The notes beneath the pieces were generated by a model. The model was not told the origin of the DNA. It made no database searches and saw only the letters and a list, made by a program, of their open reading frames with translations. A DNA stretch of 64,000 nt from Bacteriovorax sp. BAL6_X. GTDB taxonomy: Bacteria; Bdellovibrionota; Bacteriovoracia; Bacteriovoracales; Bacteriovoracaceae. Every line of letters begins with the position of its first letter. The first letter of the stretch is position 1. The translations under genes and the position numbers were made by a program. Below are positions 1,785 to 37,993 of this stretch, in pieces. Where the stretch lies: the NCBI RefSeq assembly GCF_000443995.1, contig NZ_AUMC01000010.1, positions 620,001-684,000 on the forward strand, read 5' to 3'.

Positions 1785-2477
1785 TTATGAACGTTTTAAA
1801 TACCACCATAGAAGCTGGTTCAGTGGTGTAAAGACTCCGTGGAGAAAGTTTAAGCGATTCTCAACCCAAGAAACAACTAAACAACCATCTTCACTTGTAG
1901 TTGATGGTTCATGAATGTCAGACTCCTCAAAAGTTGAAAAATCTCCAGTATCAAGCTTATGGCCATTACTACTGTAATAACCATCGAGAACATAGCTATA
2001 CTCTCTACCGTGGTGGCCATGCTTTGGAATAGTTTCACCTGGGCCTAGGTAGATAAAGTATAGTCCTCCGGTCTTACCTGATGTCACCTGAGCAACAGCA
2101 CTATTCTTCCCAAATTCTTTCCAACTAATATCCTTGTCTGAAATAAATGAAAATGTTTCAGGAAGGGAAAATGTCTTGTTTTGAAACTTTACGATAGGCG
2201 GTTTATGGATATTATTACTTTCTACCTTCGCTTTAGTGCATTCAGCTTTATCTAAAATAAAATTGAAAATATCATCAGTAACATCTTTTTCTAACTTAAG
2301 ATTAGAATTAGTGTAAAAGAAGTTATTTGCCTGACTTTCAAATTCTGACTCAGCTTGTATTCGGCAATCTTCACAATTATTTAGGTGAGCTTTAACAAGA
2401 AGTCCCGGCCCTGCCTCAAGCTCTCCAGTTACAAATCTTTTTATTAATTCAATATCTGGATGATAAAGCTTCTTCAC
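1785..2477 (-). CDS. chrR: ChrR-type anti-sigma factor with cupin sensor domain
   Basis: 230 residues; its ATG overlaps the sigma-factor stop, so the pair is translationally coupled. The N-terminal zinc anti-sigma domain has His6, His31, Cys35 and Cys38, the same positions that bind zinc in Rhodobacter sphaeroides ChrR. The C-terminal half is a cupin with HxHxxxE in KHGHHGREYSYVL and a further His in DIHEPS, again as in ChrR. ChrR holds its ECF sigma factor inactive until singlet oxygen or organic peroxides trigger release. The divergent lipid-modification operon is the expected target. The trigger in this organism is inferred from the family. Confidence 0.92.
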   Translation of the reverse strand: MKKLYHPDIELIKRFVTGELEAGPGLLVKAHLNNCEDCRIQAESEFESQANNFFYTNSNLKLEKDVTDDIFNFILDKAECTKAKVESNNIHKPPIVKFQNKTFSLPETFSFISDKDISWKEFGKNSAVAQVTSGKTGGLYFIYLGPGETIPKHGHHGREYSYVLDGYYSSNGHKLDTGDFSTFEESDIHEPSTTSEDGCLVVSWVENRLNFLHGVFTPLNQLLWWYLKRS

Positions 2478-3037
2478 TTTTGCTCCAATATAATTTTTAA
2501 ATTTTTAACGGCCAGTCGTATACGTGACTTTACTGTGCCAAGCGGTATGTTCTCTTGTTCTGCAAATTCTTTTTGAGTTAAACCTTCTTGATAAATGCCA
2601 TTAAGAACCAGCTGCTGTTCTAATGATAGTTTGGCTATCATTTCTCTTGTATAGGCCAAGTGATAAATTTCTTCAATATTATAATTCTCATCTTCTTGCT
2701 GCAGGTATTCTTCTTCAAATATGTCATAGGCACTGATGATACTTAATGGATCACGGCGCTGCTTTCTTAATATGTCATATTTTTGGTTTCTCACAATTGC
2801 ATAAATCCATGTGTTTATATTTCCTTTATCTTTATCGTATAGGTGAGCACTCTTCCAAATCTTAAGCATTACTTCTTGTGCCATATCTGCAGACTGTTCT
2901 TTATTTAGTCCACTTTTAAGGCCATATCCAAGTACTTTTGGATAATAGAATTCAAATAACTTCTTAAAAGCTTCTCGCGAATTATCCTTCGCTATCTGCA
3001 TAAGCAAATATTCAATGTCTATTAGACTGAGTTGCAC
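2474..3037 (-). CDS. rpoE: ECF RNA polymerase sigma factor, ChrR-controlled (RpoE/ECF11-like)
   Basis: The sigma2 region includes EAFKKLFEFYYPKVLGYGL, then a DMAQEVMLKIW core-binding helix and INTWIYAIVRNQKYD. The sigma4 helix-turn-helix lies at LTQKEFAEQENIPLGTVKSRIRLA. An upstream ATG at 3163 would give 229 residues. I prefer the GTG at 3037, preceded by AGGGAG at normal spacing, giving 188 codons including the stop, the usual ECF length. That choice leaves the divergent promoter region free. Overlap with chrR by 4 bp fixes it as the cognate sigma of that anti-sigma factor. It is probably autoregulated (see the promoter entry). Confidence 0.92.
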   Translation of the reverse strand: MQLSLIDIEYLLMQIAKDNSREAFKKLFEFYYPKVLGYGLKSGLNKEQSADMAQEVMLKIWKSAHLYDKDKGNINTWIYAIVRNQKYDILRKQRRDPLSIISAYDIFEEEYLQQEDENYNIEEIYHLAYTREMIAKLSLEQQLVLNGIYQEGLTQKEFAEQENIPLGTVKSRIRLAVKNLKIILEQK

Positions 3038-3132
3038 CTTTGCTGATCTCCCTATAGTAGGAATTATTTTAGCATAAACTATACACGTGTTATTTAGTAA
3101 GTCATTTGATGCTGTAAATGCCTTCATATTAT

Positions 3133-3162
3133 TTAATACGCTAATTGGATCTATTTGGATCA
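3133..3162 (-). promoter_or_regulatory. Candidate ECF-sigma promoter for rpoE-chrR
   Basis: On the minus strand TGATCC (3162-3157) is followed after 18 bases by TATTAA (3138-3133), about 100 bases upstream of the preferred sigma-factor start. TGATCC is the -35 type recognised by the Rhodobacter RpoE of the ChrR system. The location, in front of the sigma gene itself, fits autoregulation. This is a motif match only, with no transcript data. Confidence 0.5.
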
Positions 3163-3195
3163 CTAAGTAAAAAAATAAATTTACTTCTGTGATGG

Positions 3196-3225
3196 TGATC
3201 TTTTATCTGAATATGCACGTAGCAT
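3196..3225 (+). promoter_or_regulatory. Candidate ECF-sigma promoter for lipid-modification operon
   Basis: TGATCT (3196-3201) is followed after 18 bases by TAGCAT (3220-3225), about 28 bases upstream of the operon's first ATG. The TGATC core and the 18-base spacing match the candidate on the opposite strand, which supports coordinated control by the sigma factor at 2474-3037. The -10 element is weaker than its partner. Confidence 0.45.
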
Positions 3226-3252
3226 AAGTATAAGATAAATAAAGGACTGGTC

Positions 3253-4539
3253 ATGTTTGATTTAATTGTGCTCGTATTATTCTTAGTTATTCTTTATTTT
3301 ACGATAGGATGGCTGATTTCTTTGAATATTAAAGTATTTTCATATTTGGACTTCTACTGGAGCACAAGCTTTCTCGTAGTTATTACTTCATTGCTATTAT
3401 ATCGTCCCGAATTACTTGAATCGTTTCAGGCGATATTACTATGTCTACTTTATGCCTTTTGGTCTATGCGTTTAAGTACACACTTATTTCAAAGGATAAG
3501 AAAGACAGGAGAAGATAGTCGATACTTAACTTTAAAAAAGAAGTGGAAGATTATGTATGGTGTCTATCTTTATGGACTCTTTATTGGCGAGGCCGTTTTA
3601 ACAGTGATCCTATCAATACCTCTATTTCTTCTTAGTATAGAAAGTTTAACTCTTTTTAACTTCTTGGGAAGTACTTTGTTCACCATTGCACTTATAGGAG
3701 AAATGATTGCAGATAGACAACTTAAAAGCTTTATTTCTTCTAAGAATAATAAAGGTAAAGTTTGTGATATTGGTTTATGGAAATACTCACGTCATCCGAA
3801 CTACTTCTTTGAAACATTAATTTGGTTATCATACGGAGTTTATGGCCTTGATATGGAACGACCTATTACTTTTATTGGTTTTATACCGTATATCATCATG
3901 CTTTATCTTATTACTTCTGTTACAGGAGTCCCTGCGGCCGAGGAGTCATCATTGAAATCTAAAGGAGAAGTATACCGAGATTATCAAAAGCGAACGAATC
4001 GTTTTCTTATTTGGTTTCCGAAAAAAATTATAAAACATATCTTAATAATATGTTTAATTGGAGGAGTAAGTGTGAAAGAGCTAAAAGCTACAGGTTTAGA
4101 TAGTCAAAATCTGCAAGCACAACGAATTGAAAAGGTTTTTAATGAGCTACGAGCAGATAATATTGAAATCTTAAATAACTTCTATGACAAGCAGGCGCTC
4201 TTCATTGACCCCATTGGTGAACACAAAGGACTTGATGCGGTAAAAGACTACTATCAAGGAATCTATCAAGGAGTAGAGGATATACGTTTTGAGTTTTCTG
4301 ACATCGTTTCCAATGGCAATCATCATGTTGCCGTTTGGAGGATGATTCTTGTTACACCTAATCTGAACTCTGGGAAGCCGGTCATCTTATATGGAAACTC
4401 TGTCATTAAATTTAATGAATCTGGACTAGTGAGTTATCATCGTGATTATTTTGATATGGGTGAATTCATTTATGAGCATATTCCACTGCTTGGTTCTTTA
4501 ATTAGGTATATCAAGAATAGATTAAAGGGGCCGCAATGA
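3253..4539 (+). CDS. Fusion: DUF1295-family membrane protein + SnoaL-like domain
   Basis: 428 residues, first gene of the presumed ECF-sigma operon. Residues 1 to about 265 form a multi-pass membrane domain of the DUF1295/steroid-reductase-methyltransferase type, with the characteristic LWKYSRHPNYFFE motif and a PAAEESSLKSKGEVYRDYQK segment near its end. After a short hydrophobic linker, residues from about 274 form a SnoaL/NTF2-like domain (FYDKQALFIDPIGEHKG, then a DYFDMGEF ending). In other genomes with this gene set the two domains are, to my knowledge, separate genes. Here they share one frame, yet a ribosome binding site and GTG sit exactly at the junction. Substrate unknown, presumably a lipid. 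Confidence 0.85.
   Translation: MFDLIVLVLFLVILYFTIGWLISLNIKVFSYLDFYWSTSFLVVITSLLLYRPELLESFQAILLCLLYAFWSMRLSTHLFQRIRKTGEDSRYLTLKKKWKIMYGVYLYGLFIGEAVLTVILSIPLFLLSIESLTLFNFLGSTLFTIALIGEMIADRQLKSFISSKNNKGKVCDIGLWKYSRHPNYFFETLIWLSYGVYGLDMERPITFIGFIPYIIMLYLITSVTGVPAAEESSLKSKGEVYRDYQKRTNRFLIWFPKKIIKHILIICLIGGVSVKELKATGLDSQNLQAQRIEKVFNELRADNIEILNNFYDKQALFIDPIGEHKGLDAVKDYYQGIYQGVEDIRFEFSDIVSNGNHHVAVWRMILVTPNLNSGKPVILYGNSVIKFNESGLVSYHRDYFDMGEFIYEHIPLLGSLIRYIKNRLKGPQ
4060..4074 (+). promoter_or_regulatory. Internal ribosome binding site and in-frame GTG at fusion junction
   Basis: GGAGGAG at 4060-4066 lies five bases before a GTG at 4072-4074, which is codon 274 of the fusion and the first residue of the SnoaL-like domain. 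This is the signal expected for a separate SnoaL gene. It suggests either a relic of two ancestral genes or a second start that also yields the free SnoaL-like protein. Confidence 0.55.
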
Positions 4540-5774
4540 GAATAGCAATCATTGGTTCTGGTATTTCTGGACTGACATGTGCTTATAAATTGTCGAATAA
4601 GCATGATATCACGCTTTTTGAGGCCAATGACTATCTTGGTGGCCACACTCATACACACGAAATTGAATACGATGATCAAGAGCTAAAAATCGATACAGGT
4701 TTCATTGTTTTTAATAAAAAGACTTATCCGCATTTCTTAAGTCTAATCAATGAGCTCGGAGTCGAGTATAAATCTACTGCAATGAGCTTCAGTGTTCATT
4801 GTGATAAGACTGGCCTTGAATACAATGGGACAACCTTAAATACACTATTTGCTCAAAGAAGAAATCTCTTTAGGCCTTGGTTTTACTCCATGATTAATGG
4901 GATTATCGACTTTAATAAAAAGGCCAAAGTCTTTCTAGTAAATGACTCGGGCGATATTTCTCTTTCTCACTTCTTTGAAACAAGGGGAATTAGGAAGAGT
5001 GTTATCGACTATTATATTGTACCGATGATGGCGGCCGTTTGGTCGACAGATCCTGTAGCTGTTTGGCGCTTCCCTGCCAAATTCGTTTTACGATTCTTTG
5101 AAAATCATGGGTTTTTAGAAGTTGATGATCGACCACAGTGGTATGTCATCGAAGGTGGTTCAAATTCCTATATTAAGAAAATGGTACCACATTTTAAGAA
5201 ATCAATAAGACTTAAAACTCCTGTTAAATATATTACTCGTGAAAAAGAACAAGTTATTATTACAACGAAAGATGGCCGTGAAAGTTTTGATCAAGTTATC
5301 ATTGCAACACATTCAGATACGGCATTAAAATTACTAGAGAGTCCTACAAATAAAGAAATTGAATTACTTTCTGCAATTCCTTATGTTGTCAATCCAACTT
5401 ATCTTCACACTGATGATAGTTTCTTACCTAAAAGAGAACTTGCAATAGCAGCATGGAATTATCTACTTCCTACAGAGAAGTCGATTGGCCCAACTGTCAC
5501 TTATAATATGAATATTCTCCAAGGCATCAATTTTCATAAGAATTTCAATGTCACACTAAACCCATATCGACCTATTGAGAAAGATAAGATTCTAAAGGAA
5601 ATGAGCTATATGCATCCACTTTTTACTTTAGATGGGATGAAGGCCCAGGCAAGGTGGCATGAAATAAGCGGACATAATCGCACTCACTATTGTGGTGCTT
5701 ATTGGCGAAACGGTTTTCATGAAGATGGTGTCTTTAGTGCCTTGAGAATCGTTGAGGAATTGGAGAAATTATGA
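4536..5774 (+). CDS. FAD-dependent oxidoreductase (COG2907-type, amine-oxidase fold)
   Basis: 412 residues, start overlapping the previous stop by 4 bp (ATGA). The N-terminus is a textbook FAD-binding fold: IAIIGSGISGLTCAYKL, then FEANDYLGGHTHT. The C-terminus keeps a conserved HNRTHYCGAYWRNGFHEDG-like end typical of this group. COG2907 proteins recur next to DUF1365 and cyclopropane-fatty-acid synthase genes, as here. An oxidation or desaturation of a membrane fatty acyl chain is therefore likely. No signal peptide, so probably cytoplasmic and membrane-associated. Family assignment is firm; the reaction is inferred. Confidence 0.88.
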   Translation: MRIAIIGSGISGLTCAYKLSNKHDITLFEANDYLGGHTHTHEIEYDDQELKIDTGFIVFNKKTYPHFLSLINELGVEYKSTAMSFSVHCDKTGLEYNGTTLNTLFAQRRNLFRPWFYSMINGIIDFNKKAKVFLVNDSGDISLSHFFETRGIRKSVIDYYIVPMMAAVWSTDPVAVWRFPAKFVLRFFENHGFLEVDDRPQWYVIEGGSNSYIKKMVPHFKKSIRLKTPVKYITREKEQVIITTKDGRESFDQVIIATHSDTALKLLESPTNKEIELLSAIPYVVNPTYLHTDDSFLPKRELAIAAWNYLLPTEKSIGPTVTYNMNILQGINFHKNFNVTLNPYRPIEKDKILKEMSYMHPLFTLDGMKAQARWHEISGHNRTHYCGAYWRNGFHEDGVFSALRIVEELEKL

Positions 5775-6559
5775 AATCTTGTCTTTATGAAGGAATAGTC
5801 ATGCATTCTCGCTTTCGTCCAAAAGTACACTTTTTCAAGTATAAGCTCTTTCTCGTTTATCTTGATTTAGATGAGGTTGATGAATTTTTCTCACTCTCTC
5901 GTTTCTGGTCTTATATGAAGGGAAATATTGCATACTTCAAAAGAAGTGATTATCACGGTGACAAGACTAAGAATCTTAAAAGTGAAGTTTTAAAGACTGT
6001 TGAAATGCACCTCGGTCGTAATATTGAAGGTTCAGTTAGAATGCTGACAAGCCTTCGATATTTTGGTCACTGCTTTAATCCTGTTACTTTCTACTACTGC
6101 TTTAATAAAGAATGTGAGATTGAAGCTATTATGGCCGAAATTGAAAATACCCCCTGGGGGGAGAGGTTTTGTTATGTTGTTGATGCAACAAAGGCCTCTC
6201 ATGACAAAGAGATTAGGAAAAAATTTAAAAAAGAATTTCATGTATCACCGTTCTTTCCTATGTCTTTGATGTATGATTGGAGATTTTCCAATCCTCATGA
6301 TTTATTAAAAATAAATATGGAAACATTTGAAAAAGGGGAAAAGGTCTTCTTGGCAAGTATGAACCTTAAGAAGGTCGTTGCCACAGAAGGTGCGCTTAAT
6401 AAAATACTAATTAAATTCCCTTTGATTACTTTGAAGGTTGTCCTTGGCATTTATTTTCAAGCATTCCTCTTGTGGATTAAAGGTGTACCTTTCTTTGATC
6501 ATCCGAATCCAGCTAGTCGTAGAGAGTTATTTTCACATACGAATATAAAGGAGAAATAA
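5771..6559 (+). CDS. DUF1365 family protein (COG3496)
   Basis: 262 residues, ATGA overlap with the oxidoreductase. It begins with CLYEGIVMHSRFRPKVHFFKYKLF and has the family hallmark LRYFGHCFNPVTFYYCF, followed by EIENTPWGERFCYV and SPFFPMSLMYDWRF. A hydrophobic C-terminal stretch (ITLKVVLGIYFQAFLLWIKG) suggests membrane association. DUF1365 members are consistently linked to COG2907 and CFA synthase genes in sigma/ChrR regulons, but the biochemical role is unknown to me. A run of C and G (CCCCCTGGGGGG) near 6150 is part of the coding frame. Confidence 0.88.
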   Translation: MKSCLYEGIVMHSRFRPKVHFFKYKLFLVYLDLDEVDEFFSLSRFWSYMKGNIAYFKRSDYHGDKTKNLKSEVLKTVEMHLGRNIEGSVRMLTSLRYFGHCFNPVTFYYCFNKECEIEAIMAEIENTPWGERFCYVVDATKASHDKEIRKKFKKEFHVSPFFPMSLMYDWRFSNPHDLLKINMETFEKGEKVFLASMNLKKVVATEGALNKILIKFPLITLKVVLGIYFQAFLLWIKGVPFFDHPNPASRRELFSHTNIKEK

Positions 6560-7815
6560 TGAGATCAAATATCAAAACTATAGAGAAGTCTCAATTTTTA
6601 AATAAACATGATAGACCAGGTGTGCTCCTTCGAACTCTTCGTGACGCAATTTTAAAGAAGTTGGCCTTATTAGAAAATGTACGATTAACGATTTATGTTG
6701 GCCGTAGGAAGCATATTCTTGGCCGTGGGTCTAAGCGCATTAGTGCTGAGATGATTATTCATGACCAGAGCTTCTTTACAGATATTTTTATCAAGGGCTC
6801 CATTGGTGCTGCTGAGTCTTATATCCTAAAGAAATGGGATACTCCAAATTTAAGTAATGTTATGAGAGTATTTGCTATCAATAAAGACCTTCTTAGTGAG
6901 ATGGATTCTGGCTTTGTAAATTTTCTAAAGCCTGCTAGGTTTTTAGAATATTGGCAAAATCGAAATACTCTTACTGGTTCTAAAAAGAATATAGAGGCCC
7001 ATTACGACTTACCAGATGAACTTTTTAAACACTTCTTAGATGACTCGATGATGTATTCAAGTGCAATATTTGCAAATAAAAAATCTACTTTGGAAGAAGC
7101 TCAACAATATAAGCTAAAACTTATAGGTGAGCGATTAAATATTAGGGCCGGTGATCATATTCTTGAGATTGGAACTGGCTGGGGGGGGCTTGCCATTCAT
7201 CTCGCACAAACCTATGACTGTCATGTTACAACGACGACGATCTCTGAAAATCAATATGAAGAAGCTCAAAGAAGAATTAAGGCAGCAGGACTTGAAGATA
7301 GGATTACTCTTTTGAAAAAAGACTACCGTCTACTTGAAGGGAGCTTTGATCGTGTCGTATCAATTGAGATGATTGAGGCCGTTGGTGAAAAATTCTTAAA
7401 TACATATATGAAAAAGATATCAGACGTTCTTAGAGCTGACGGCCTCGCTCTTTTACAGATAATTACCATTAATGATCAAGAGTATGATCGTGCTGTCAAA
7501 GAGCTAGATTTTATTAAGAAATATATTTTCCCTGGTAGTTTTATCCCTTCTATTCATGCTGTTCTAGATGCAGCTAAGAGGGTTTCAGATTTGCGTCTAT
7601 ACTTTCAAATTGATTTTGCTCAGGACTACGTACGTACTCTTAAAGAGTGGCAGAATCGATTTAATCACGAAACGCATAAGATTCCAAAACTTGGCGAAGA
7701 TGAACAATTTAAACGACTTTGGAATTTCTATTTTTCGTATTGTATAGGGGGCTTTAGCGAAAGGGCCATTGGTGTTTCTCATTTAGTCTTCGGTAAACCA
7801 CTTTATAGATCTTAG
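6559..7815 (+). CDS. Cyclopropane-fatty-acyl-phospholipid synthase family methyltransferase
   Basis: 418 residues; the start shares one base with the preceding stop. The N-terminal region (1-140) is the CFA-type lipid-binding domain. NIEAHYDLPDELFKHFLDDSMMYSSAIF is the classic substrate-side motif, and ILEIGTGWGGLAIHLA is the S-adenosylmethionine loop. FDRVVSIEMIEAVGEKF and a FIKKYIFPGSFIPS stretch complete the family signature. It should transfer a methyl or methylene carbon to a double bond in a phospholipid acyl chain. A second, more divergent methyltransferase of the same family follows seven bases later, so the two may act in series. Confidence 0.92.
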   Translation: MRSNIKTIEKSQFLNKHDRPGVLLRTLRDAILKKLALLENVRLTIYVGRRKHILGRGSKRISAEMIIHDQSFFTDIFIKGSIGAAESYILKKWDTPNLSNVMRVFAINKDLLSEMDSGFVNFLKPARFLEYWQNRNTLTGSKKNIEAHYDLPDELFKHFLDDSMMYSSAIFANKKSTLEEAQQYKLKLIGERLNIRAGDHILEIGTGWGGLAIHLAQTYDCHVTTTTISENQYEEAQRRIKAAGLEDRITLLKKDYRLLEGSFDRVVSIEMIEAVGEKFLNTYMKKISDVLRADGLALLQIITINDQEYDRAVKELDFIKKYIFPGSFIPSIHAVLDAAKRVSDLRLYFQIDFAQDYVRTLKEWQNRFNHETHKIPKLGEDEQFKRLWNFYFSYCIGGFSERAIGVSHLVFGKPLYRS

Positions 7816-7821
7816 GAGGAT

Positions 7822-8844
7822 ATGATGTCTATTTTAATGAGTGCTGCTGAAAGAGGCCTTATTCCTAATCCATTAATTAGAATGGGAATAAGAAAGTTAA
7901 TCAAGAAACGTAAGGATGAGATTTATGAAAATCTCGATTTTCATAAAAATGGAATTATAGAAGAGTTTAATAAGTCCCTTATTGCGGAAGATGTTGATAA
8001 AGCTAACGAACAACACTATGAGCTTCCTGCGGAGTTTTTTAAGTTGGTATTAGGTTCACATTTAAAGTATTCAAGTGCTCTTTTTGATGATGGAGTGAAG
8101 AGTCTCGATGAAGCAGAAAGTGCAATGCTTGAAAAATATTGTGAAAGAGCTCAGATTGAAGATGGGATGGAGATCCTAGAGTTAGGGTGTGGTTGGGGTT
8201 CTCTAAGTTTATATCTGGCCAAGAAGTTTCCTAATTCAAAGATTATCGCCATTTCAAATTCGAATGGACAAAGAGAGTTTATTGAAAGTCGAATAAAAGA
8301 GTGCTCTCTAAATAATCTTAAGATTATAACATGTGATATTAATGAGTTTAGCATTGAGCGTAAATTTGATCGTATTATTTCAATCGAAATGTTTGAACAT
8401 ATGCGTAATTATAATTCTTTATTTTCCAAACTCTCTTCTTGGTTAAATGATGATGGAAAACTATTTATTCATATCTTCTGTCATAAAGATGCCTCTTATT
8501 TCTTTGAAACTCAGGGTGAAGATAATTGGATGGGCCGTTATTTCTTTACCGGGGGAGTGATGCCGAGCTTTGGCCTATTTGAAAAGGTGCAAGATAGTTT
8601 CAAACTAATAGAAAAATGGAAGGTTAATGGAGCCAATTATCAAGAAACTTCAGAGCAGTGGTTTCAAAATATGGAGAAGAGGCGACCTGAAATCATGAAA
8701 GTTATGGCCGCTACCTATGGTGAAGATCGGGCCAATATTTGGTTTCATCGATGGAAGATATTCTTTGCATCATGTGCCGAATTATTTGGTCATGGTAAAG
8801 GTGAAGAATGGTTTGTTGGGCACTTCTTATTTGAAAAGAAGTAG
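7822..8844 (+). CDS. Second CFA-synthase-like SAM methyltransferase
   Basis: 340 residues, with an AGGAGG ribosome binding site just upstream. It keeps the AdoMet loop LELGCGWGSLSLYLA, the EQHYELPAEFFKLVLG and LKYSSALF substrate motifs and FDRIISIEMFEHM. It lacks the longer N-terminal lipid-binding domain of the preceding gene and has a distinct middle (FCHKDASYFFETQGEDNWMGRYFF). This is the COG2230 branch that also contains coclaurine N-methyltransferase-like proteins. In this operon a lipid acyl chain is the likeliest methyl acceptor. The pairing of two different CFA-family enzymes is seen in the sequence; the division of labour is inference. Confidence 0.88.
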   Translation: MMSILMSAAERGLIPNPLIRMGIRKLIKKRKDEIYENLDFHKNGIIEEFNKSLIAEDVDKANEQHYELPAEFFKLVLGSHLKYSSALFDDGVKSLDEAESAMLEKYCERAQIEDGMEILELGCGWGSLSLYLAKKFPNSKIIAISNSNGQREFIESRIKECSLNNLKIITCDINEFSIERKFDRIISIEMFEHMRNYNSLFSKLSSWLNDDGKLFIHIFCHKDASYFFETQGEDNWMGRYFFTGGVMPSFGLFEKVQDSFKLIEKWKVNGANYQETSEQWFQNMEKRRPEIMKVMAATYGEDRANIWFHRWKIFFASCAELFGHGKGEEWFVGHFLFEKK

Positions 8845-8862
8845 TCAAACACGGAGATTAAA

Positions 8863-9555
8863 ATGATTTTTGCAATATGCTTTCTATTTATCCATTGGTA
8901 CTTGTCATTATTTTGTCAGTCCTTTTACTTACATCGTTATATATCTCATAGTCTTTGTAAGCTTACACCTGCTTGGGACAAGTCATTCTTGATTCTTACA
9001 ATTTTAGCTCAAGGGCCAAGTTTTTTACGTCCTCAACATTATAAAGCATTGCATATAAATCATCATAAATATTCAGATGATATTGGAGACCCTCATTCTC
9101 CCGTTATTAGTAAGAATATTATCTCTATGATGTTTAATACGTATAGAGAGTACATGAGCGTAGAAACACAAGATGAAAAATTTCCTTGTGTTGTTGCTGT
9201 CGCTGATTCCGTATTCGTTAGATTACTCTTTATCGTACTATATGCGCTGATGTATCTATTATTTACAGATTCATATTGGTACCTTTTGCTTGTTCCAATT
9301 CACAGCTTACTAGGGCCAATTCACGGTGCGATTGTAAACTGGTGTGGCCATAAATATGGATATCGAAATCATAACTTGGATGATCATTCCAAGAATACTC
9401 TGTTGATAGATTTTCTGATGATGGGGGAATTATACCAAAATAATCATCATGCAAATGAAAGTAGCCTGAATTTCGCTGATAAAAAAAATGAATTTGATTT
9501 TACCTTTATTGCTCTTAAGTTTTTGAAGAGAGCAAAGGTGGTGAGCTATGATTAA
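8863..9555 (+). CDS. Membrane fatty-acid desaturase (DesC/acyl-CoA desaturase type)
   Basis: 230 residues with the three histidine boxes of membrane di-iron desaturases: HRYISH near 24-29, HINHHKYSDD near 68-77 and NNHHANES near 195-202. Hydrophobic segments lie between them (the start, about 45-60 and about 105-140). The protein is short for the family but all boxes are present. It would introduce a cis double bond in an acyl chain, providing or further modifying the substrate of the two methyltransferases upstream. The ORF overlaps the next gene by 8 bp. Confidence 0.9.
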   Translation: MIFAICFLFIHWYLSLFCQSFYLHRYISHSLCKLTPAWDKSFLILTILAQGPSFLRPQHYKALHINHHKYSDDIGDPHSPVISKNIISMMFNTYREYMSVETQDEKFPCVVAVADSVFVRLLFIVLYALMYLLFTDSYWYLLLVPIHSLLGPIHGAIVNWCGHKYGYRNHNLDDHSKNTLLIDFLMMGELYQNNHHANESSLNFADKKNEFDFTFIALKFLKRAKVVSYD

Positions 9556-10015
9556 ACTAATGAGAATGACTGTAGCTTTATTTTTTCTACTTACCTGTGC
9601 CAATGCTTTAAGTGGACAACTACGATTGGTTGGAAAGGGGACTCTTTCATATTTTATCTGGAATGTTTATGAAGTGTCTTATTTTAAAAACTCTAGTGAT
9701 AACGTTGAATTACTTAAGATTAGATATCTTCGAGACGTCGATAGAACAATATCTCAAGAAGGATGGAGGGAGTCATTGAAGAAATATGATAATATTGAAA
9801 AACAAATAAAGCTATTCGTTGATAGTAGTGTTGATGTAAAGGAGGGAGATGTTATATCTATCTATAAACTCAATGGAAACAAAGTAGTCATAAAAAAAAA
9901 TGACAAGGTCATACTTGAGAGTACGGATGATAAAAAACTATATTTCCTAGCACATGCTCCATGGCTTGGTGAGTACCCTGTCGACTCAGGTTTGAAAAGG
10001 GACTTGTTAAAGTAA
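9548..10015 (+). CDS. Exported chalcone-isomerase-like protein
   Basis: 155 residues with a Sec signal peptide (about 1-22, ending near CANALSGQ). The mature part, with LRLVGKGTLSYFIWNVYEVSYF and a YLRDVDRTISQEGWRESL stretch, resembles the small bacterial chalcone-isomerase-like domain. Plant members of this fold bind fatty acids. It is the last gene of the operon and should be periplasmic, so binding or carrying a modified fatty acid is a reasonable idea. It converges on the 10017-12986 gene with one base between them and no clear terminator. Confidence 0.75.
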   Translation: MIKLMRMTVALFFLLTCANALSGQLRLVGKGTLSYFIWNVYEVSYFKNSSDNVELLKIRYLRDVDRTISQEGWRESLKKYDNIEKQIKLFVDSSVDVKEGDVISIYKLNGNKVVIKKNDKVILESTDDKKLYFLAHAPWLGEYPVDSGLKRDLLK

Positions 10016-18913: not shown

Positions 18914-19480
18914 GTGCAAACTTTAATCAACACAAAAGTACAAGACTTCAGTGTACAAGCTTACCACAATGAAGACTTCAAAACAGTTACTGCTAATGAT
19001 CTAGAAGGTAAATGGTCAATCCTTTTCTTCTATCCAGCAGACTTTACATTCGTATGCCCAACTGAGCTTGGAGACATGGCAGATAAGTATGAAGAATTCC
19101 AAAAAATGGGTGTCGAAGTTTACTCTGTATCAACAGATACTCACTTCACACACAAAGCATGGCATGACACTTCAGATACTATCAAGAAAATCAAGTACCC
19201 AATGCTTGCAGACCCAACTGGTCAACTAACTAGAGCATTTGGTGTTCATATTGAAGAAGAAGGCCTTGCTTATAGAGGGACATTCTTAATTAACCCTGCT
19301 GGAGAAATCAAGCTTGCTGAAGTTCAAGACAATGGAATTGGTCGTAATGCTGATGAGCTAATGAGAAAAGTTCAAGCTGCTCAGTTCATCGCTGAAAATC
19401 CAAATGAAGTATGTCCAGCTAAGTGGAAGCCAGGGGCCGAAACACTTAAGCCAGGTTTAGACCTTGTAGGAAAAATCTAA
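18914..19480 (+). CDS. ahpC: Alkyl hydroperoxide reductase subunit C (2-Cys peroxiredoxin)
   Basis: 188 residues from GTG with ribosome binding site AAGGAG. FYPADFTFVCPTELGDMA carries the peroxidatic Cys48, and NEVCPAKWKPG carries the resolving Cys167 near the C-terminus. It reduces H2O2 and organic peroxides and is recycled by AhpF, encoded 73 bases downstream. A hairpin between the two genes may tune their ratio. Confidence 0.96.
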   Translation: MQTLINTKVQDFSVQAYHNEDFKTVTANDLEGKWSILFFYPADFTFVCPTELGDMADKYEEFQKMGVEVYSVSTDTHFTHKAWHDTSDTIKKIKYPMLADPTGQLTRAFGVHIEEEGLAYRGTFLINPAGEIKLAEVQDNGIGRNADELMRKVQAAQFIAENPNEVCPAKWKPGAETLKPGLDLVGKI

Positions 19481-19503
19481 GATTTATCCTCAACGATATT
19501 TTG

Positions 19504-19527
19504 GGCCCGAGCTTTATTGCTTGGGCC
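19504..19527 (+). terminator. Intercistronic hairpin between ahpC and ahpF
   Basis: A nine-base stem (19504-19512 with 19519-19527, one G-T pair) closes a TTTATT loop. No T run follows directly, so partial termination or transcript processing is more likely than full termination. This would favour ahpC over ahpF expression. Confidence 0.5.
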
Positions 19528-19553
19528 TGTCCTAGAATTTTATTGGAGTAATT

Positions 19554-21104
19554 ATGTTAGATAGTGGAATCATTGAACAATTAAAGTCTGTCTACGCTCA
19601 ACTGGAGAGTGAGATTGGGCTTGTTTACAATGAATCAAGTCATACTAAACAACAAGAGCTTGTTGAGATGATTGAGAGTATCGCGACTACTTCTCCAAAG
19701 ATTGTGGCAAAGTCTAGCGGCCAAAATTACGATTACCCACATTTTGAAATTCATGTGAATGGCAAGGCAAATGGAATCAAGTTTTCTGGTATTCCAGGAG
19801 GTCATGAATTTACATCACTTATTCTTGCTATCCTAAATAGTGATCTTAAAGGAAAACTTCCTGATGAGATGATTATTAACCGAATTAAAGCATTAAAAGG
19901 TGAGATAAACCTTAAGACATATATTTCTCTTTCTTGTGAGAATTGCCCAGATATTGTCCAAGCACTTAATCTAATGTCCATCTTCAATGAGGACTTCACT
20001 CACGAAATGATTGATGGAGAGTTTGAGCAGGATGAAATTTCTAGACTTAAGATTCAGGGAGTCCCAAGTGTGATTGATGGAGATGAATTAGTTCACTCTG
20101 GAAAGTCTTCACTTGTTGATTTATTAGAAAAGCTAGAAGCACGCTTTGGAAAAGAAGAGACACAGTCTTCTGGCGAAGCAAAAGACCTAGGTCTATATGA
20201 TGTTATTGTTATTGGAGGAGGCCCTGCTGGTGTTTCGTCAGCGATCTACTCAGCACGTAAGGGACTTAAGACTGCCGTGATCACTGATCGTATTGGTGGT
20301 CAAATGCAAGATACCAAAGGCATCGAAAATTTCATCTCAATTCCATATACGGAAGGTCCGCATTTATCTGCGGCCCTTAATAAGCATATGGATGAATATG
20401 ATATTAAGAGCCTTGAACATCGTCGTGTTGAAAATATTGAAAACGGTGATGTTAAAACTTTATTTTTAAATAGTGGAGAAACTGTTCAAACAAAGGCCCT
20501 CATCATTGCAACAGGTGCAAAGTGGCGTGAGCTTGGTGTTGACGGTGAGAAAGAGTATGTCGGTCGTGGTGTTGCTTATTGTCCTCACTGTGATGGCCCT
20601 TATTATAAAGGCAAAGATATAAGTGTTGTTGGTGGAGGAAACTCTGGTGTTGAAGCGGCCATTGACCTTGCCGGTATTGTAAAGTCAGTGACACTCTTTG
20701 AGTTTGCACCAGAACTTAAAGCAGACTCTGTTCTTGTTAAGAAGCTTGAGTCTCTACCGAATGTAACAATCGTTAAAAATGCACGTACGGATAAGGTTGT
20801 TGGTGACGGCGAAAAAGTTATCGGTCTTGAGTACGAGGATCGTGCAACTGGTGAGATGAAGAAAGTCGACCTAGATGGCGTCTTTGTTCAAATTGGACTT
20901 GTGCCAAATAGTGAATTCCTAGGGGATCTAGTTGAAAAAAATAAGTTTGGAGAAATCATTGTAACTGATAAGTGTCGCACAAATCAGAAAGGTGTTTATG
21001 CTGCTGGAGATGTAACAATTGTTCCGTATAAGCAGATTATTATAGCAATGGGAGAAGGGGCCAAAGCTGGTCTCACTGCCTTTGAAGATTTAATGCTTGT
21101 GTAA
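19554..21104 (+). CDS. ahpF: Alkyl hydroperoxide reductase subunit F
   Basis: 516 residues, the full AhpF architecture. The N-terminal tandem thioredoxin-like domain (about 1-200) has Cys128-Glu-Asn-Cys131. A thioredoxin-reductase-like part follows, with FAD motif [23 protein letters not shown], redox pair Cys343-Pro-His-Cys346 ([10 protein letters not shown]), NAD motif [17 protein letters not shown] and the C-terminal GVYAAGDVT. It passes electrons from NAD(P)H to AhpC. Followed by a strong terminator. Confidence 0.96.
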
Positions 21105-34162: not shown

Positions 34163-36049
34163 GTGAATTGGGTTAGGGCAATAATCTTTACATTTACTCT
34201 TACTATCTTTGCGCTTCCAAGCATCGCATTAGATAAATATGAAGTTCTTATTCTTCATTCTTACTCGCGTGATAGTATTTGGACGGACCTTATTGATCAG
34301 TCAATTAAGAAGTATCTTCATAGTGATAGGAATCACTTAGATGTGTATACAGAGTATATGGATTCTAAGCGTTTCTTTGGCCAGGACTATAGTGAAAAAT
34401 TATATAACCTATTCTCAATTAAATACTCCGACAGAAATATTAAATTAATTATCACTTCTGATGATAATGCTTTTGCATTCGCGATGAAGTATCGTGAAAC
34501 ATTATTTCAGAATAGTCAGATTATATTCGCAGGAGTTAATGGTTATCATAACGAGTTTAAGCAGAAGTATCGAAATGAGAATAATTATACGGGATTAGTT
34601 GAGAGCTTCAAGATCAAAGAAATGCTTGAACTTTCTCAGAAGTTACACACCAAGGCAAATAAGTTTTATATTATCAACACAATACATACTCCAAGTGGTC
34701 AGTACCTAAAGAAAGAGTTCCAAAAGTCTATTATTGAGTTGAAACTAGAGGACAAAGTTGAGTTCTTAGAAGATTTAAGTGCAAGCGATCTTTATAAAAA
34801 AGTCAAAACACTAGAAAAGGGCTCATTTGCTCTTTATGGTGGCTTTTCTCGTGATCGTGATGGAAATTTTCTAGACTTTGAAAAGAATCTTAGCGAGTTA
34901 GCAAAACATTCGAATGTGCCTATATACGGCTTCTTAAAATACTATCTTCCGTACGGGTTGACAGGGGGCTACTTCACAAGTGGTGAGCTATACGGAAAGG
35001 AAGCTGCTCTTATTGCAAATAAAGTCATTTCGGGTGTAGATATAAATTCTATTCCAATTGTTGAAAACGTGGATGCTCCGATAATTTTTGATTACGCAAA
35101 GATTGTTAAGTATGGCCTAGACTTTCACAAGCTACCGGTAAATGCACAGATTATAAATCGCAATAATAAGCTACTTCGTTTTTATGAAGAATATACCTTT
35201 GAGTTTTGGTTTATTCTATTTTCATTTGCGTGTCTATTTATTAGCCTGGTGGTTCTTGCTTATCATTTTGAACAACAGAAGAAACATAAGAAGGCCGTTC
35301 TTCGAATTAATGAACAACTTGAGGAACGAGTCGAAAAGAGAACAAGACAGCTAATTGAACAACAGTCAAAACTGATTAACTCGGCCAAGCTTGCTTCAAT
35401 TGGGGAGATGGCCAGCGGGATTGCTCACGAAATTAACAATCCTCTTACAATCATTGACTTGAGTGCTTATCGAATCGTTCAAATGGCGGATAATGAAATT
35501 GTTTTAAAGTCTGCTCAGAAGATAAAGCTTACAGTTGATCGTATCTCTAAAATCATAAAAGGGCTTAAACAACTGGCCAAGGAAGACGCTAGTCTTACAA
35601 GTGAGCTTGTCAATATTAAGGCAGCGATTGAAGATGTCATCTCAATTTGTAAGACAAAATTTAAAGAGAATGAAATTCATTTTAAAATTGATGTCGATGA
35701 AAATTTAAAAGTTCACGGCGCCCCTGTTCAAATCTCTCAGGTCGTTTTAAATCTTCTTAATAACTCTTTTGATGAATTAGTGCAGGGTGATACTGAACGT
35801 TGGATTAAGCTTGAAGGTAAAAAAGAGATGGATATTGTTGAAATCTCTGTAACGGACTCAGGTAAGGGGATCTCTGACGAGATTTTTGAAAAAATCATGG
35901 AGCCATTCTTTACAACTAAGGTTGATCAAAGAGGTACTGGCCTTGGGCTAAGTATCTGTAAGAATATTATTGAGCACCACAAGGGCCGCATCTTTGTCGA
36001 TAGGTCTTGTCCGAACACTCGTTTTGTTATTCAACTACCTACTGCGTAA
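34163..36049 (+). CDS. Sensor histidine kinase with periplasmic ABC-substrate-binding-like domain
   Basis: 628 residues from GTG. Signal/first helix at 1-22, a periplasmic domain of the ABC_sub_bind type (about 25-340, ILHSYSRDSIWTDL to YGLTGGYFTSGELYG) and a membrane helix at about 350-370. Then a coiled coil, HisKA with His422 in MASGIAHEINNPLTIID, and HATPase_c (LNLLNNSFDELVQ, VTDSGKGISDE, RGTGLGLSICK). It should sense a small periplasmic molecule. A close paralog follows 42 bases downstream, so this is a tandem duplication. No response regulator is adjacent. Confidence 0.9.
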   Translation: MNWVRAIIFTFTLTIFALPSIALDKYEVLILHSYSRDSIWTDLIDQSIKKYLHSDRNHLDVYTEYMDSKRFFGQDYSEKLYNLFSIKYSDRNIKLIITSDDNAFAFAMKYRETLFQNSQIIFAGVNGYHNEFKQKYRNENNYTGLVESFKIKEMLELSQKLHTKANKFYIINTIHTPSGQYLKKEFQKSIIELKLEDKVEFLEDLSASDLYKKVKTLEKGSFALYGGFSRDRDGNFLDFEKNLSELAKHSNVPIYGFLKYYLPYGLTGGYFTSGELYGKEAALIANKVISGVDINSIPIVENVDAPIIFDYAKIVKYGLDFHKLPVNAQIINRNNKLLRFYEEYTFEFWFILFSFACLFISLVVLAYHFEQQKKHKKAVLRINEQLEERVEKRTRQLIEQQSKLINSAKLASIGEMASGIAHEINNPLTIIDLSAYRIVQMADNEIVLKSAQKIKLTVDRISKIIKGLKQLAKEDASLTSELVNIKAAIEDVISICKTKFKENEIHFKIDVDENLKVHGAPVQISQVVLNLLNNSFDELVQGDTERWIKLEGKKEMDIVEISVTDSGKGISDEIFEKIMEPFFTTKVDQRGTGLGLSICKNIIEHHKGRIFVDRSCPNTRFVIQLPTA

Positions 36050-36091
36050 ATAAATAATTGCATTTTAGGGATTAAGTGATATTTATTTATA

Positions 36092-37993
36092 ATGATAAGC
36101 TTAAAGGCCATTGGTCGTACCATTGTATTTTTATTCTTTTTATTAAGTTCACTTGTCCAAGCTTCAGAAACATTTGAGATTCTTGTGTTGCACTCTTATG
36201 AAAAAGGGAATGTGTGGACTGAAGAACTTGATAGCTCCTTTCGCTTTCATTTACACCGACGCAGTAATTATTCAATGAAATTCTATACAGAGTATATGGA
36301 CTCTAAAAGATTCTTTGGACAAGAATATGATCAGATCTTAGCGAAGTTATACGCGACAAAGTTTAGCACGCATAAAATTGACCTTATTGTAACAACTGAC
36401 GATTATGCATTTGATTTTGCTATTAAATATCGAAAAGAGATTTTCAATGATGCGCCTATCATTTTTAGTGGCGTAAATGGCTATGATAAGTTTAAGCGTG
36501 ATCTCTATCAAACAGAAAAGAACTTTACGGGTGTCGTTGAAACTTTTGATGTTATTCCCACTGTTAAGGGGGCTCTTGATATGAACCCTATGGCCAAAAA
36601 GATCTATGTGATAAATACTCAATTTACTCCAACTGGCCGTTATCTTAAGAAACAATTTGAAAATTCATTTAAAAAAATGAAGCTCAAGCAACAAATTATC
36701 TATATTGAAAATTACAATATGGAAGAAATTTATGAAATGGCCAAGGGGTTTGAGGATGATTCGATTGTTCTCTTTGGTGTTTATGCAAGGGATCGAGATG
36801 GAAAGTACTTTGAATTAGATGAAAACATTAAGAATCTTAGTAAAGTTTCAGCCCAACCAATCTATGGTTTTAATAAAGTCTTTTTAAATAAGGGGATCGT
36901 CGGAGGTAATGTTTCTGATGGATCGATTTATGGAAGAGAGATAGCTCGAATGGCAGATGAGTTTCTTTCTGGCGAAAAGAAAATATCAGAGATTCCATTA
37001 ATTATTGAATCGATAAATGACCTTGTTTTCGACCTTGATCAACTAAAGAGATATGATATTGATATCAATACGCTACCTGAAAAATCTAGGGTCATCAGTT
37101 ATTCATCTAGTTTCTTTCAATTCTATCATGAGTATAAGTCAGAACTTTTAGTGGTTTTTGCATGCTTTGTTTGCCTGTGTATTTTCTTCTTTATCTTATT
37201 ATACTTTTTTGAGAAGCAGCGTAGCTATAAAGACTCTCTCATGAGAGTGAATGAGAAGCTTGAAAGAAGTGTCCATGACCGTACAGTACAGCTCGTACAA
37301 CAACAGTCACAAATTATTAACTCTGCCCGTCTCGTTTCAATTGGGGAGATGGCCAGTGGGATTGCTCACGAGATTAATAATCCGTTAACAATTATCGACC
37401 TGAGTGCTAACCGAATCTCTCAGCGTACAGGCTCTGATGATATCATCAAGAATGCAGGCCGAATCTCAAATACAGCATTTAGAATTTCAAAAATTATTAA
37501 GGGCCTAAAACATCTTGCCAAGGATGGAGATAAGTCAAAATATACTGATTTCCATCTAATTGAGGCCGTAGAAGATGTCACATCTCTGTGTTATGAGAAG
37601 TTTAAAGAGAACGATATCGTATTTAATATTAATGTTGATGAGTCAATTGTAATTCATGGCTCTGTTATTCAAATCGCTCAAGTTCTTCTAAATTTAATAA
37701 ATAACTCATTTGACGAACTAATCAATGTTAAAGGAGAGAGAAAGATCAATGTAAAGGCCGTTCCTATTAAGAATTATGTGGAAATCTCAATTACTGATAC
37801 TGGGAGAGGGATACCGGAGGATATTCGAGCTAAAATTATGGAGCCTTTCTTTACAACAAAGAAAAAGAATAGAGGAACAGGACTTGGTCTAAGTATTTCT
37901 AAAAGTCATATTGAAAAACATGGTGGTGAGTTTTATTTGGATGAAAGCTCTTCTTTGACTCGTTTTGTTTTTACCATTCCACATAAGGTATAA
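36092..37993 (+). CDS. Paralogous sensor histidine kinase (tandem duplicate)
   Basis: 633 residues with the same domain order as the gene before it: signal peptide, ABC-substrate-binding-like periplasmic domain, one membrane helix, coiled coil, HisKA with His426 in MASGIAHEINNPLTIID, HATPase_c ending in RGTGLGLSISKSHIE. The sequences share TEYMDSKRFFGQ and near-identical kinase cores, while the sensor domains have diverged more. That suggests duplication followed by a change of ligand, or heterodimers. Confidence 0.9.
   Translation: MISLKAIGRTIVFLFFLLSSLVQASETFEILVLHSYEKGNVWTEELDSSFRFHLHRRSNYSMKFYTEYMDSKRFFGQEYDQILAKLYATKFSTHKIDLIVTTDDYAFDFAIKYRKEIFNDAPIIFSGVNGYDKFKRDLYQTEKNFTGVVETFDVIPTVKGALDMNPMAKKIYVINTQFTPTGRYLKKQFENSFKKMKLKQQIIYIENYNMEEIYEMAKGFEDDSIVLFGVYARDRDGKYFELDENIKNLSKVSAQPIYGFNKVFLNKGIVGGNVSDGSIYGREIARMADEFLSGEKKISEIPLIIESINDLVFDLDQLKRYDIDINTLPEKSRVISYSSSFFQFYHEYKSELLVVFACFVCLCIFFFILLYFFEKQRSYKDSLMRVNEKLERSVHDRTVQLVQQQSQIINSARLVSIGEMASGIAHEINNPLTIIDLSANRISQRTGSDDIIKNAGRISNTAFRISKIIKGLKHLAKDGDKSKYTDFHLIEAVEDVTSLCYEKFKENDIVFNINVDESIVIHGSVIQIAQVLLNLINNSFDELINVKGERKINVKAVPIKNYVEISITDTGRGIPEDIRAKIMEPFFTTKKKNRGTGLGLSISKSHIEKHGGEFYLDESSSLTRFVFTIPHKV

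What the first reader, a model, noticed from the sequence alone, without database searches (positions are those of the whole stretch)
1785..10015. ECF sigma/ChrR pair divergent from a seven-gene membrane-lipid remodelling operon in a predator-like bacterium
The anti-sigma factor keeps the exact Zn ligands (H6, H31, C35, C38) and cupin ligands of Rhodobacter ChrR, known to respond to singlet oxygen and organic peroxide. In Rhodobacter the regulon includes CFA-synthase homologues and the Ufa enzymes that make methylated furan fatty acids. Here all probable lipid genes sit in one operon. It has two CFA-type methyltransferases, a membrane di-iron desaturase, a COG2907 flavoprotein, DUF1365 and a periplasmic chalcone-isomerase-like protein that could bind the product. 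A branched, methylated or furan lipid made under photo-oxidative stress is the natural reading. The product itself is inference.
Basis: partly seen in the sequence, partly recalled or inferred. Interest (0 to 1): 0.62.

Follow-up and report, generated by a model that had tools for sequence, protein, structure and literature searches.

The report
ChrR-controlled furan fatty acid operon
A light-and-peroxide alarm (a sigma factor with its zinc-binding inhibitor) sits back to back with an operon holding close relatives of all four enzymes known to turn membrane fatty acids into antioxidant furan fatty acids; this is a known kind of system in a bacterial group where I found no report of it, and it ties an uncharacterised membrane enzyme, DUF1295, to the last methylation step.

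Summary
An ECF sigma factor (best solved match: Rhodobacter RpoE) and a ChrR-like anti-sigma with all eight zinc ligands lie divergent from a tight operon. The 90 bp between them carry two exact, divergent ECF11 promoters (TGATCC/T-N16-CGTA). The genome's six other matches to this motif all lie inside ORFs, so this locus is probably the whole regulon. COG2907 is a UfaD homologue and DUF1365 a UfaO homologue. The first methyltransferase falls in the UfaM clade and has the UfaM-type active-site change (EA/Q instead of EH/H of cyclopropane synthase). The second falls with Rhodopseudomonas FufM (about 41% identity), which makes dimethyl furan fatty acids. The most likely product is therefore a dimethyl furan fatty acid, sacrificed to singlet oxygen. 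Product and induction are inferred. The full-length ChrR type occurs in none of 75 relatives searched; gene lineages suggest lateral transfer. DUF1295 sits directly upstream of FufM across alpha-, beta- and gamma-proteobacteria. The apparent DUF1295-NTF2 fusion hangs on one A7 run and may be two genes. Verdict: new member of a known kind, with a testable new lead (DUF1295).

The parts
1785..2477 (-). ChrR-like anti-sigma factor: zinc anti-sigma domain + cupin domain, 230 aa
   Evidence: Pfam Cupin_7 and zf-HC2, TIGR02451 109.7 bits, below its cut-off of 124.5, ligands aligned to 2z2s; the only full-length ChrR type among 76 genomes searched
2474..3037 (-). ECF (ECF11-like) sigma factor, 187 aa from GTG 3037 (ORF opens at 3163)
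   Evidence: R. sphaeroides RpoE 2q1z 96 bits, next solved ECF 39 bits; start chosen because GTG 3163 lies upstream of the -10 element
3137..3162 (-). ECF11 promoter of the sigma/anti-sigma unit, TGATCC-N16-CGTA
   Evidence: exact match to the consensus of PMC5507510 and PMC4336711
3196..3221 (+). ECF11 promoter of the lipid operon, TGATCT-N16-CGTA, 31 bp before ATG 3253
   Evidence: exact match; 8 sites in the genome, the other 6 inside ORFs
3253..4071 (+). DUF1295 membrane enzyme (steroid-5-alpha-reductase/ICMT-like fold class), part of ORF 3253-4539
   Evidence: DUF1295 188 bits; aligned with stand-alone DUF1295 proteins that end near residue 265
4021..4027 (+). A7 run on which the DUF1295-NTF2 single reading frame depends
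4072..4539 (+). NTF2/SnoaL-like domain or separate gene (GTG 4072, Shine-Dalgarno GGAGGAG 4060-4066)
   Evidence: SnoaL_2; aligned end to end with stand-alone NTF2 proteins of gamma-proteobacterial furan operons
4536..5774 (+). UfaD homologue (FAD-dependent methyl-fatty-acyl desaturase, COG2907)
   Evidence: Amino_oxidase; always next to UfaO in relatives and Rhodopseudomonas; 32-row alignment
5771..6559 (+). UfaO homologue (DUF1365, furan-forming oxygenase family)
   Evidence: DUF1365 256 bits; keeps all residues invariant in 34 homologues, e.g. H12, R14, N126, T127, K154, S159, P160, F161
6559..7815 (+). UfaM homologue (SAM-dependent cis-monoene methyltransferase)
   Evidence: in the UfaM clade, 98/92 support; A274 and Q300 replace H240 and H266 of E. 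coli Cfa, as in 29/29 UfaM-type rows
7822..8844 (+). FufM homologue (furan fatty acid methyltransferase; coclaurine-NMT-like)
   Evidence: 41-42% identity to Rhodopseudomonas FufM-type proteins; clade 100/100; best PDB match coclaurine N-methyltransferase 250 bits, E. coli Cfa 107
8863..9555 (+). membrane di-iron fatty acid desaturase
   Evidence: FA_desaturase, DesA family; HX4H, HXXHH, QXXHH boxes read directly; same partner in G028, G008 and Acinetobacter loci
9548..10015 (+). secreted chalcone-isomerase-like protein
   Evidence: Chalcone_3; signal-peptide-like N-terminus read directly; recurrent in furan operons

Best explanation
This is a self-contained singlet-oxygen/organic-peroxide response that makes a (probably dimethyl) furan fatty acid in membrane phospholipids. 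At rest the zinc-bound ChrR-like protein holds the ECF sigma factor. Oxidative damage leads to loss of ChrR, and the freed sigma factor fires two divergent promoters: its own gene pair and the lipid operon. UfaM methylates a cis double bond of a phospholipid chain to a methyl-branched trans-monoene. UfaD (FAD, O2) makes the methyl-diene. UfaO inserts oxygen from O2 to close the furan. FufM adds the second methyl. The desaturase probably supplies the cis-monoene. DUF1295, NTF2 and the secreted CHI-like protein are accessories, perhaps for product handling or for reducing the electrophilic ene-dione left when a furan has trapped singlet oxygen. Shown here: gene identities, clades, active-site signatures, promoters, conserved gene order. 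Taken from Rhodobacter/Rhodopseudomonas work: each chemical step and the ChrR turnover loop. Inferred: that they hold in this organism, the final product, and the roles of the desaturase, DUF1295, NTF2 and CHI.
For: ChrR ligands exact. Sigma closest to RpoE of R. sphaeroides. Two exact divergent ECF11 promoters, the only intergenic ones of 8 in the genome; the same promoter type flanks the same genes in Shinella, R. tropici and Pseudoalteromonas. UfaD-UfaO-UfaM gene block conserved in relatives, gamma-proteobacteria and Rhodopseudomonas. UfaM clade and EA/Q signature (further rows). FufM clade, with five Rhodopseudomonas proteins that are FufM by elimination. Enzyme functions: PMC7380195. ChrR loop: PMC3818230, PMC6852236. 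Only one DUF1365 and only two full CMAS genes in the genome, all in this operon.
Against: No lipid or expression data. The ChrR homologue is below NCBI's curated cut-off. R. palustris FufM was recognised by elimination and gene context, not by its accession. UfaM clade support is good, not maximal. The common ancestor of the bacterial FufM-type group apart from plant N-methyltransferases is weakly supported (59/48). RSP1087-1089-type accessories had no effect on fatty acids in Rhodobacter, so accessory genes here may also be dispensable for synthesis.
Confidence: 0.8

Rival explanations
1. The pathway stops at the monomethyl furan fatty acid, and the second methyltransferase acts on something else (another lipid or an amine, as its plant coclaurine-NMT relatives do).
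For: Best solved relatives of this enzyme are plant N-methyltransferases; FufM-type genes are absent from many furan operons, so the pathway does not need them.
Against: It sits in the furan operon here and in many unrelated loci, and groups with the Rhodopseudomonas FufM-type proteins; R. palustris FufM methylates furan lipid in vitro (PMC7380195).
Confidence: 0.17
2. The product is a cyclopropane or simple methyl-branched fatty acid, not a furan: MT1 is a CFA synthase and COG2907/DUF1365 play other roles.
For: Pfam and NCBIfam name MT1 CMAS/CFA synthase; UfaM over-expression in E. coli also raised cyclic fatty acids in Halomonas work (PMC12089945).
Against: MT1 lacks the His pair (H240, H266) kept in E. 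coli Cfa and in the RPA3082-like enzymes, and falls in the UfaM clade; DUF1365 and COG2907 homologues are the furan enzymes in two species (PMC7380195).
Confidence: 0.08
3. The operon's main use is signalling: UfaD/UfaO or their lipid mainly trigger ChrR loss (positive feedback), with little bulk protection.
For: RSP1090/1091 are needed for singlet-oxygen-driven ChrR proteolysis (PMC3818230); the predicted regulon here is only this locus, so the output of the response is the lipid genes themselves.
Against: A seven-or-eight-gene operon including FufM and a desaturase is more than a signal needs; most loci with the lipid genes have no ChrR.
Confidence: 0.15

Closest known systems
R. sphaeroides sigmaE-ChrR core regulon (rpoE-chrR, RSP1091-1087, RSP2143-2144)
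   Same: ECF11 sigma, ChrR ligands, TGATC-N17-CGTA promoters, UfaD, UfaO and UfaM homologues
   Different: All lipid genes in one divergent operon; adds FufM, DUF1295, NTF2, desaturase, CHI; no photolyase, SDR or GPH transporter in the operon; sigma and ChrR only distantly similar
R. palustris dimethyl-furan pathway (RPA2569-2571 + RPA0924)
   Same: All four enzymes UfaM, UfaD, UfaO, FufM
   Different: There FufM sits at a second locus, directly after DUF1295; here all are in one ChrR-linked operon
sigma-ChrR-DUF1295-FufM loci of Shinella, Mesorhizobium, Ensifer and Rhizobium plasmids
   Same: Same sigma/ChrR type, DUF1295-FufM pair, UfaD/UfaO nearby, same promoters
   Different: Other gene orders; DUF2147/DUF2177/lipocalin genes instead of desaturase/CHI
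Lipid operons of relatives G028 and G008 (L024, L031)
   Same: Same order DUF1295-UfaD-UfaO-UfaM-FufM, then desaturase, with CHI in L024
   Different: No sigma/ChrR pair beside them, DUF1295 not joined to NTF2
Chlamydomonas SAK1-dependent singlet-oxygen genes (CFA1, CFA2, DUF1365, DUF1295, DUF2177)
   Same: The same protein families induced by singlet oxygen (PMC4067076)
   Different: Eukaryote, other regulator, products unknown; relation is by family name only

Membership tests
ChrR anti-sigma (ZAS + cupin) | Zn ligands H6, H31, C35, C38 and cupin ligands H141, H143, E147, H177 | tested here: met
   ligands from PMC6852236
ChrR anti-sigma (ZAS + cupin) | NCBI curated score for TIGR02451 (124.5 bits) | tested here: not met
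   109.7 bits over 206 of 216 positions; so 'ChrR-like, works like ChrR' rather than a formally named member
ChrR anti-sigma (ZAS + cupin) | Turnover and sigma release on singlet oxygen or organic peroxide | not testable with these tools
   needs a bench test
ECF11 sigma factor | Closest to R. sphaeroides RpoE, next to ChrR, autoregulated from TGATCC-N16-CGTA | tested here: met
   promoter activity itself not tested
UfaM | In the UfaM clade, encoded with UfaO/UfaD, and not a CFA synthase | tested here: met
   clade 98/92 and EA/Q signature in 29/29 UfaM-type rows; adjacent to UfaO. The signature was defined here; its catalytic meaning is inference
UfaD | FAD-binding COG2907-type flavoprotein paired with UfaO | tested here: met
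   activity not tested
UfaO | DUF1365 over gathering score, invariant residues kept | tested here: met
   255.7 bits, cut-off 25; activity not tested
FufM | Groups with R. palustris FufM, apart from UfaM and Cfa | tested here: met
   clade 100/100 without plant rows; with plant rows the FufM+NMT group holds 95.5/96, bacterial group 59/48; R. palustris FufM assigned by elimination
Cyclopropane fatty acid synthase | E239-H240 and H266 of E. coli Cfa | tested here: not met
   MT1 has A274 and Q300 at the positions of H240 and H266
Furan fatty acid pathway | Furan fatty acid in the phospholipids | not testable with these tools
   needs GC-MS

The most novel reading that the evidence does not exclude
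DUF1295 is an unrecognised member of dimethyl-furan fatty acid metabolism working with FufM. It is encoded directly upstream of FufM, often with overlapping ends, across alpha-, beta- and gamma-proteobacteria, and shares the locus in most FufM-bearing relatives of the window. It would act either in making the dimethyl product or in reducing the ene-dione formed when the furan traps singlet oxygen; the Chlamydomonas singlet-oxygen response would be the eukaryotic counterpart.
Probability: 0.45. Interest if true: 0.62.

Novelty: new member of a known kind. Interest (0 to 1): 0.42.

Why it matters
It places the complete mono- and dimethyl furan fatty acid pathway, with its ChrR alarm, outside the Proteobacteria classes in which the ECF11 core regulon was described, in one 8-kb unit with a predicted regulon of a single locus. 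That makes the link between singlet oxygen, ChrR and furan lipids testable with very few parts. The comparison also gives practical markers: EA/Q tells UfaM from cyclopropane synthase in sequence data, and DUF1295 next to a coclaurine-NMT-like gene marks FufM. It also shows the same lipid genes beside ChrR, NrsF-type, RskA-type and MerR regulators, so the output is more conserved than the sensor.

Tried and rejected
PDB search with UfaO found nothing. A Rhodobacter/Rhodopseudomonas plasmid as anchor was not held; a light-harvesting peptide was used to find named Rhodopseudomonas genomes instead. The idea that the ECF11 motif marks a wide regulon was rejected: 8 matches against 9 for the backward control, six inside ORFs. 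The mBio paper on ChrR activation was not held. A DUF1295-NTF2 Rosetta-stone fusion was considered and downgraded because it rests on an A7 run. FabA search: two FabA/FabZ-family genes found and not told apart, so the source of the cis-monoene is open; two more desaturases lie elsewhere.
Full report
What is there. Window 1785-3037 on the minus strand encodes a ChrR-like anti-sigma factor and an ECF sigma factor; window 3253-10015 on the plus strand encodes DUF1295+NTF2, a COG2907 flavoprotein, DUF1365, two CMAS-type methyltransferases, a membrane desaturase and a secreted chalcone-isomerase-like protein. The lipid genes overlap or are 6-18 bp apart, so one transcript is likely.

Regulator. The sigma factor's best solved match is R. 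sphaeroides RpoE (96 bits; next ECF 39 bits). The anti-sigma aligns without gaps over the cupin to ChrR 2z2s and keeps all eight zinc ligands (ligand list in PMC6852236). It stays under NCBI's cut-off for the ChrR family (109.7 against 124.5 bits), so I call it ChrR-like. Among 76 genomes searched (the window's and 75 relatives, five of the same genus), no other holds a full-length ChrR type; the other matches are cupin-only, mostly as tandem pairs.

Promoters. ECF11 sigmas read TGATCC-N16-CGTA (PMC5507510, PMC4336711). The intergenic region has exact sites on both strands, each facing its own unit: 3137-3162 minus and 3196-3221 plus. TGATCY-N16-CGTA occurs 8 times in the 3.23-Mb genome, 9 for the backward control; the other six sites lie inside ORFs. 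By simple proportion, one such site on each strand in this short stretch has a chance probability near 1e-8. The inference is that the regulon is this locus. Shinella has the same divergent pair of sites between UfaD and its sigma gene. The sigma ORF's first GTG (3163) lies upstream of the -10 element; GTG 3037 is the likely start.

Enzymes. In R. sphaeroides and R. palustris, UfaM methylates cis-vaccenoyl chains, UfaD (FAD protein) makes the methyl-diene, UfaO (DUF1365) inserts oxygen from O2 to give the furan, and FufM adds a second methyl (PMC7380195). Named Rhodopseudomonas genomes were found with a light-harvesting peptide. Most carry three CMAS-type genes: one beside UfaO (UfaM), one more Cfa-like, and one 40-43% identical to the window's second methyltransferase. 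The paper's RPA0924 (FufM) is the most distant of the three from UfaM, as is this third gene here, so it is taken as FufM (inference by elimination). In a 55-row tree the window's first enzyme lies in the UfaM clade (98/92, 30 rows) apart from E. coli Cfa and the RPA3082-like enzymes; the second lies in the FufM clade (100/100, 21 rows). With plant N-methyltransferases added, FufM-type and plant enzymes group together apart from UfaM/Cfa (95.5/96), but the bacterial FufM group alone is weakly held (59/48). Two positions sort the families: E. coli Cfa E239-H240 and H266 are E-H and H in Cfa-type and FufM-type rows but E-A and Q in 29 of 29 UfaM-type rows, the window's first enzyme included (A274, Q300; EA also in four further rows). 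Loss of the active-site histidine fits a changed fate of the carbocation; that link is inference. UfaO keeps the residues invariant in 34 homologues.

Gene order elsewhere. UfaD-UfaO-UfaM are contiguous in nearly all relatives that have DUF1365 (24 of 78 genomes), fused as UfaO-UfaM in two (L022, L029). Relatives G028 and G008, of other genera in the window's family, have the window's order DUF1295-UfaD-UfaO-UfaM-FufM followed by the desaturase, G028 with CHI too, but no ChrR. Named loci with the same genes: Acinetobacter, Caballeronia, R. tropici, Shinella, Burkholderia, Cupriavidus, Mesorhizobium, R. brockwellii, Ensifer, Pseudoalteromonas, Salinivibrio, Klebsiella and Legionella plasmids. 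The DUF1295 domain is in 14 of 16 loci with a FufM-type gene and 1 of 13 without (Fisher p 2e-5; rows are related and some contigs cut, so indicative only). DUF1295 is directly upstream of FufM in five Rhodopseudomonas loci and in all annotated proteobacterial plasmid loci read in which both are listed; R. palustris RPA0923 is thus probably DUF1295. NTF2 and CHI recur too, chiefly in gamma-proteobacterial operons and in same-genus relatives.

Origin. The window's UfaM groups with G028, G008, G068 and gamma-proteobacteria (100/98), while same-genus relatives G001 and G004 fall near Caballeronia, Rhizobium and Rhodopseudomonas, and G003 falls in a third group (concatenated tree). This, and the lone ChrR, suggest lateral transfer of module and sensor, separately or together. 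Guards differ between loci: ChrR here, NrsF in G068, RskA in Caballeronia, MerR in Klebsiella and Salinivibrio.

Caution on gene 1. The DUF1295 part ends where stand-alone homologues end; the frame then runs through an A7 run, 15 residues and a GTG with a strong Shine-Dalgarno into an NTF2 domain that matches stand-alone NTF2 proteins end to end. One base in the A7 run decides between fusion and two genes; the sequence cannot settle it.

How it most likely works. ChrR loss frees sigma; sigma raises itself and the lipid operon; UfaM, UfaD, UfaO and FufM turn a cis-monoene in phospholipid into a dimethyl furan; the furan is spent on singlet oxygen. UfaD and UfaO are needed for ChrR proteolysis in Rhodobacter (PMC3818230), so a positive loop is likely. 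The desaturase probably supplies the monoene. DUF1295 might reduce the ene-dione left by furan oxidation, since its fold class holds enone reductases; it could instead use SAM, as the ICMT branch does. These last points are hypotheses.

Novelty. The ECF11 core regulon is described for alpha-, beta- and gamma-proteobacteria (PMC6852236, PMC3818230). I found no report of it with the furan pathway in this group, in a library that lacks most subscription papers. The system is a new member of a known kind; DUF1295-FufM is the new lead, and no held paper links DUF1295 with furan fatty acids.

Noticed in passing
L022 5118-7109 (-); L029 9949-11913 (+): UfaO and UfaM are fused in one frame of about 660 aa in two genomes of another family of the phylum (G076, G069), a natural UfaO-UfaM fusion.
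   Followed up: partly
L023 11257-12470: In G068 the furan operon follows an ECF sigma with an NrsF-type membrane anti-sigma; in Caballeronia (L042) and probably Burkholderia (L206) the anti-sigma is not ChrR (RskA type in L042). The same lipid output sits beside different sensors.
   Followed up: partly
L190-L202: Several relatives carry cupin-only proteins, mostly two tandem ChrR-type cupins of about 221-252 aa, without the anti-sigma domain.
   Followed up: no
L043, L206, L210: Furan-pathway genes lie on plasmids typed as conjugative (R. tropici CIAT 899, B. anthina, Neorhizobium), so the pathway can travel.
   Followed up: no
window 18914-21104: AhpC/peroxiredoxin and AhpF-type flavoprotein pair, about 9 kb from the furan operon, with no ECF11 site.
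   Followed up: no
window 56471-62626: 2051-aa ORF ending in a Peptidase_S74 chaperone, like trimeric fibre proteins; such fibres are known from predatory Bdellovibrio (own knowledge), the only hint found that the host is a predator.
   Followed up: partly
window 34163-37993: Two adjacent, similar ORFs (628 and 633 aa) that read as periplasmic-sensor histidine kinases, apparently a tandem duplication.
   Followed up: no
L035 11712-12987: DUF1295 (-) and NTF2 (+) ORFs overlap on opposite strands downstream of UfaM in G009; gene calls there need checking.
   Followed up: no
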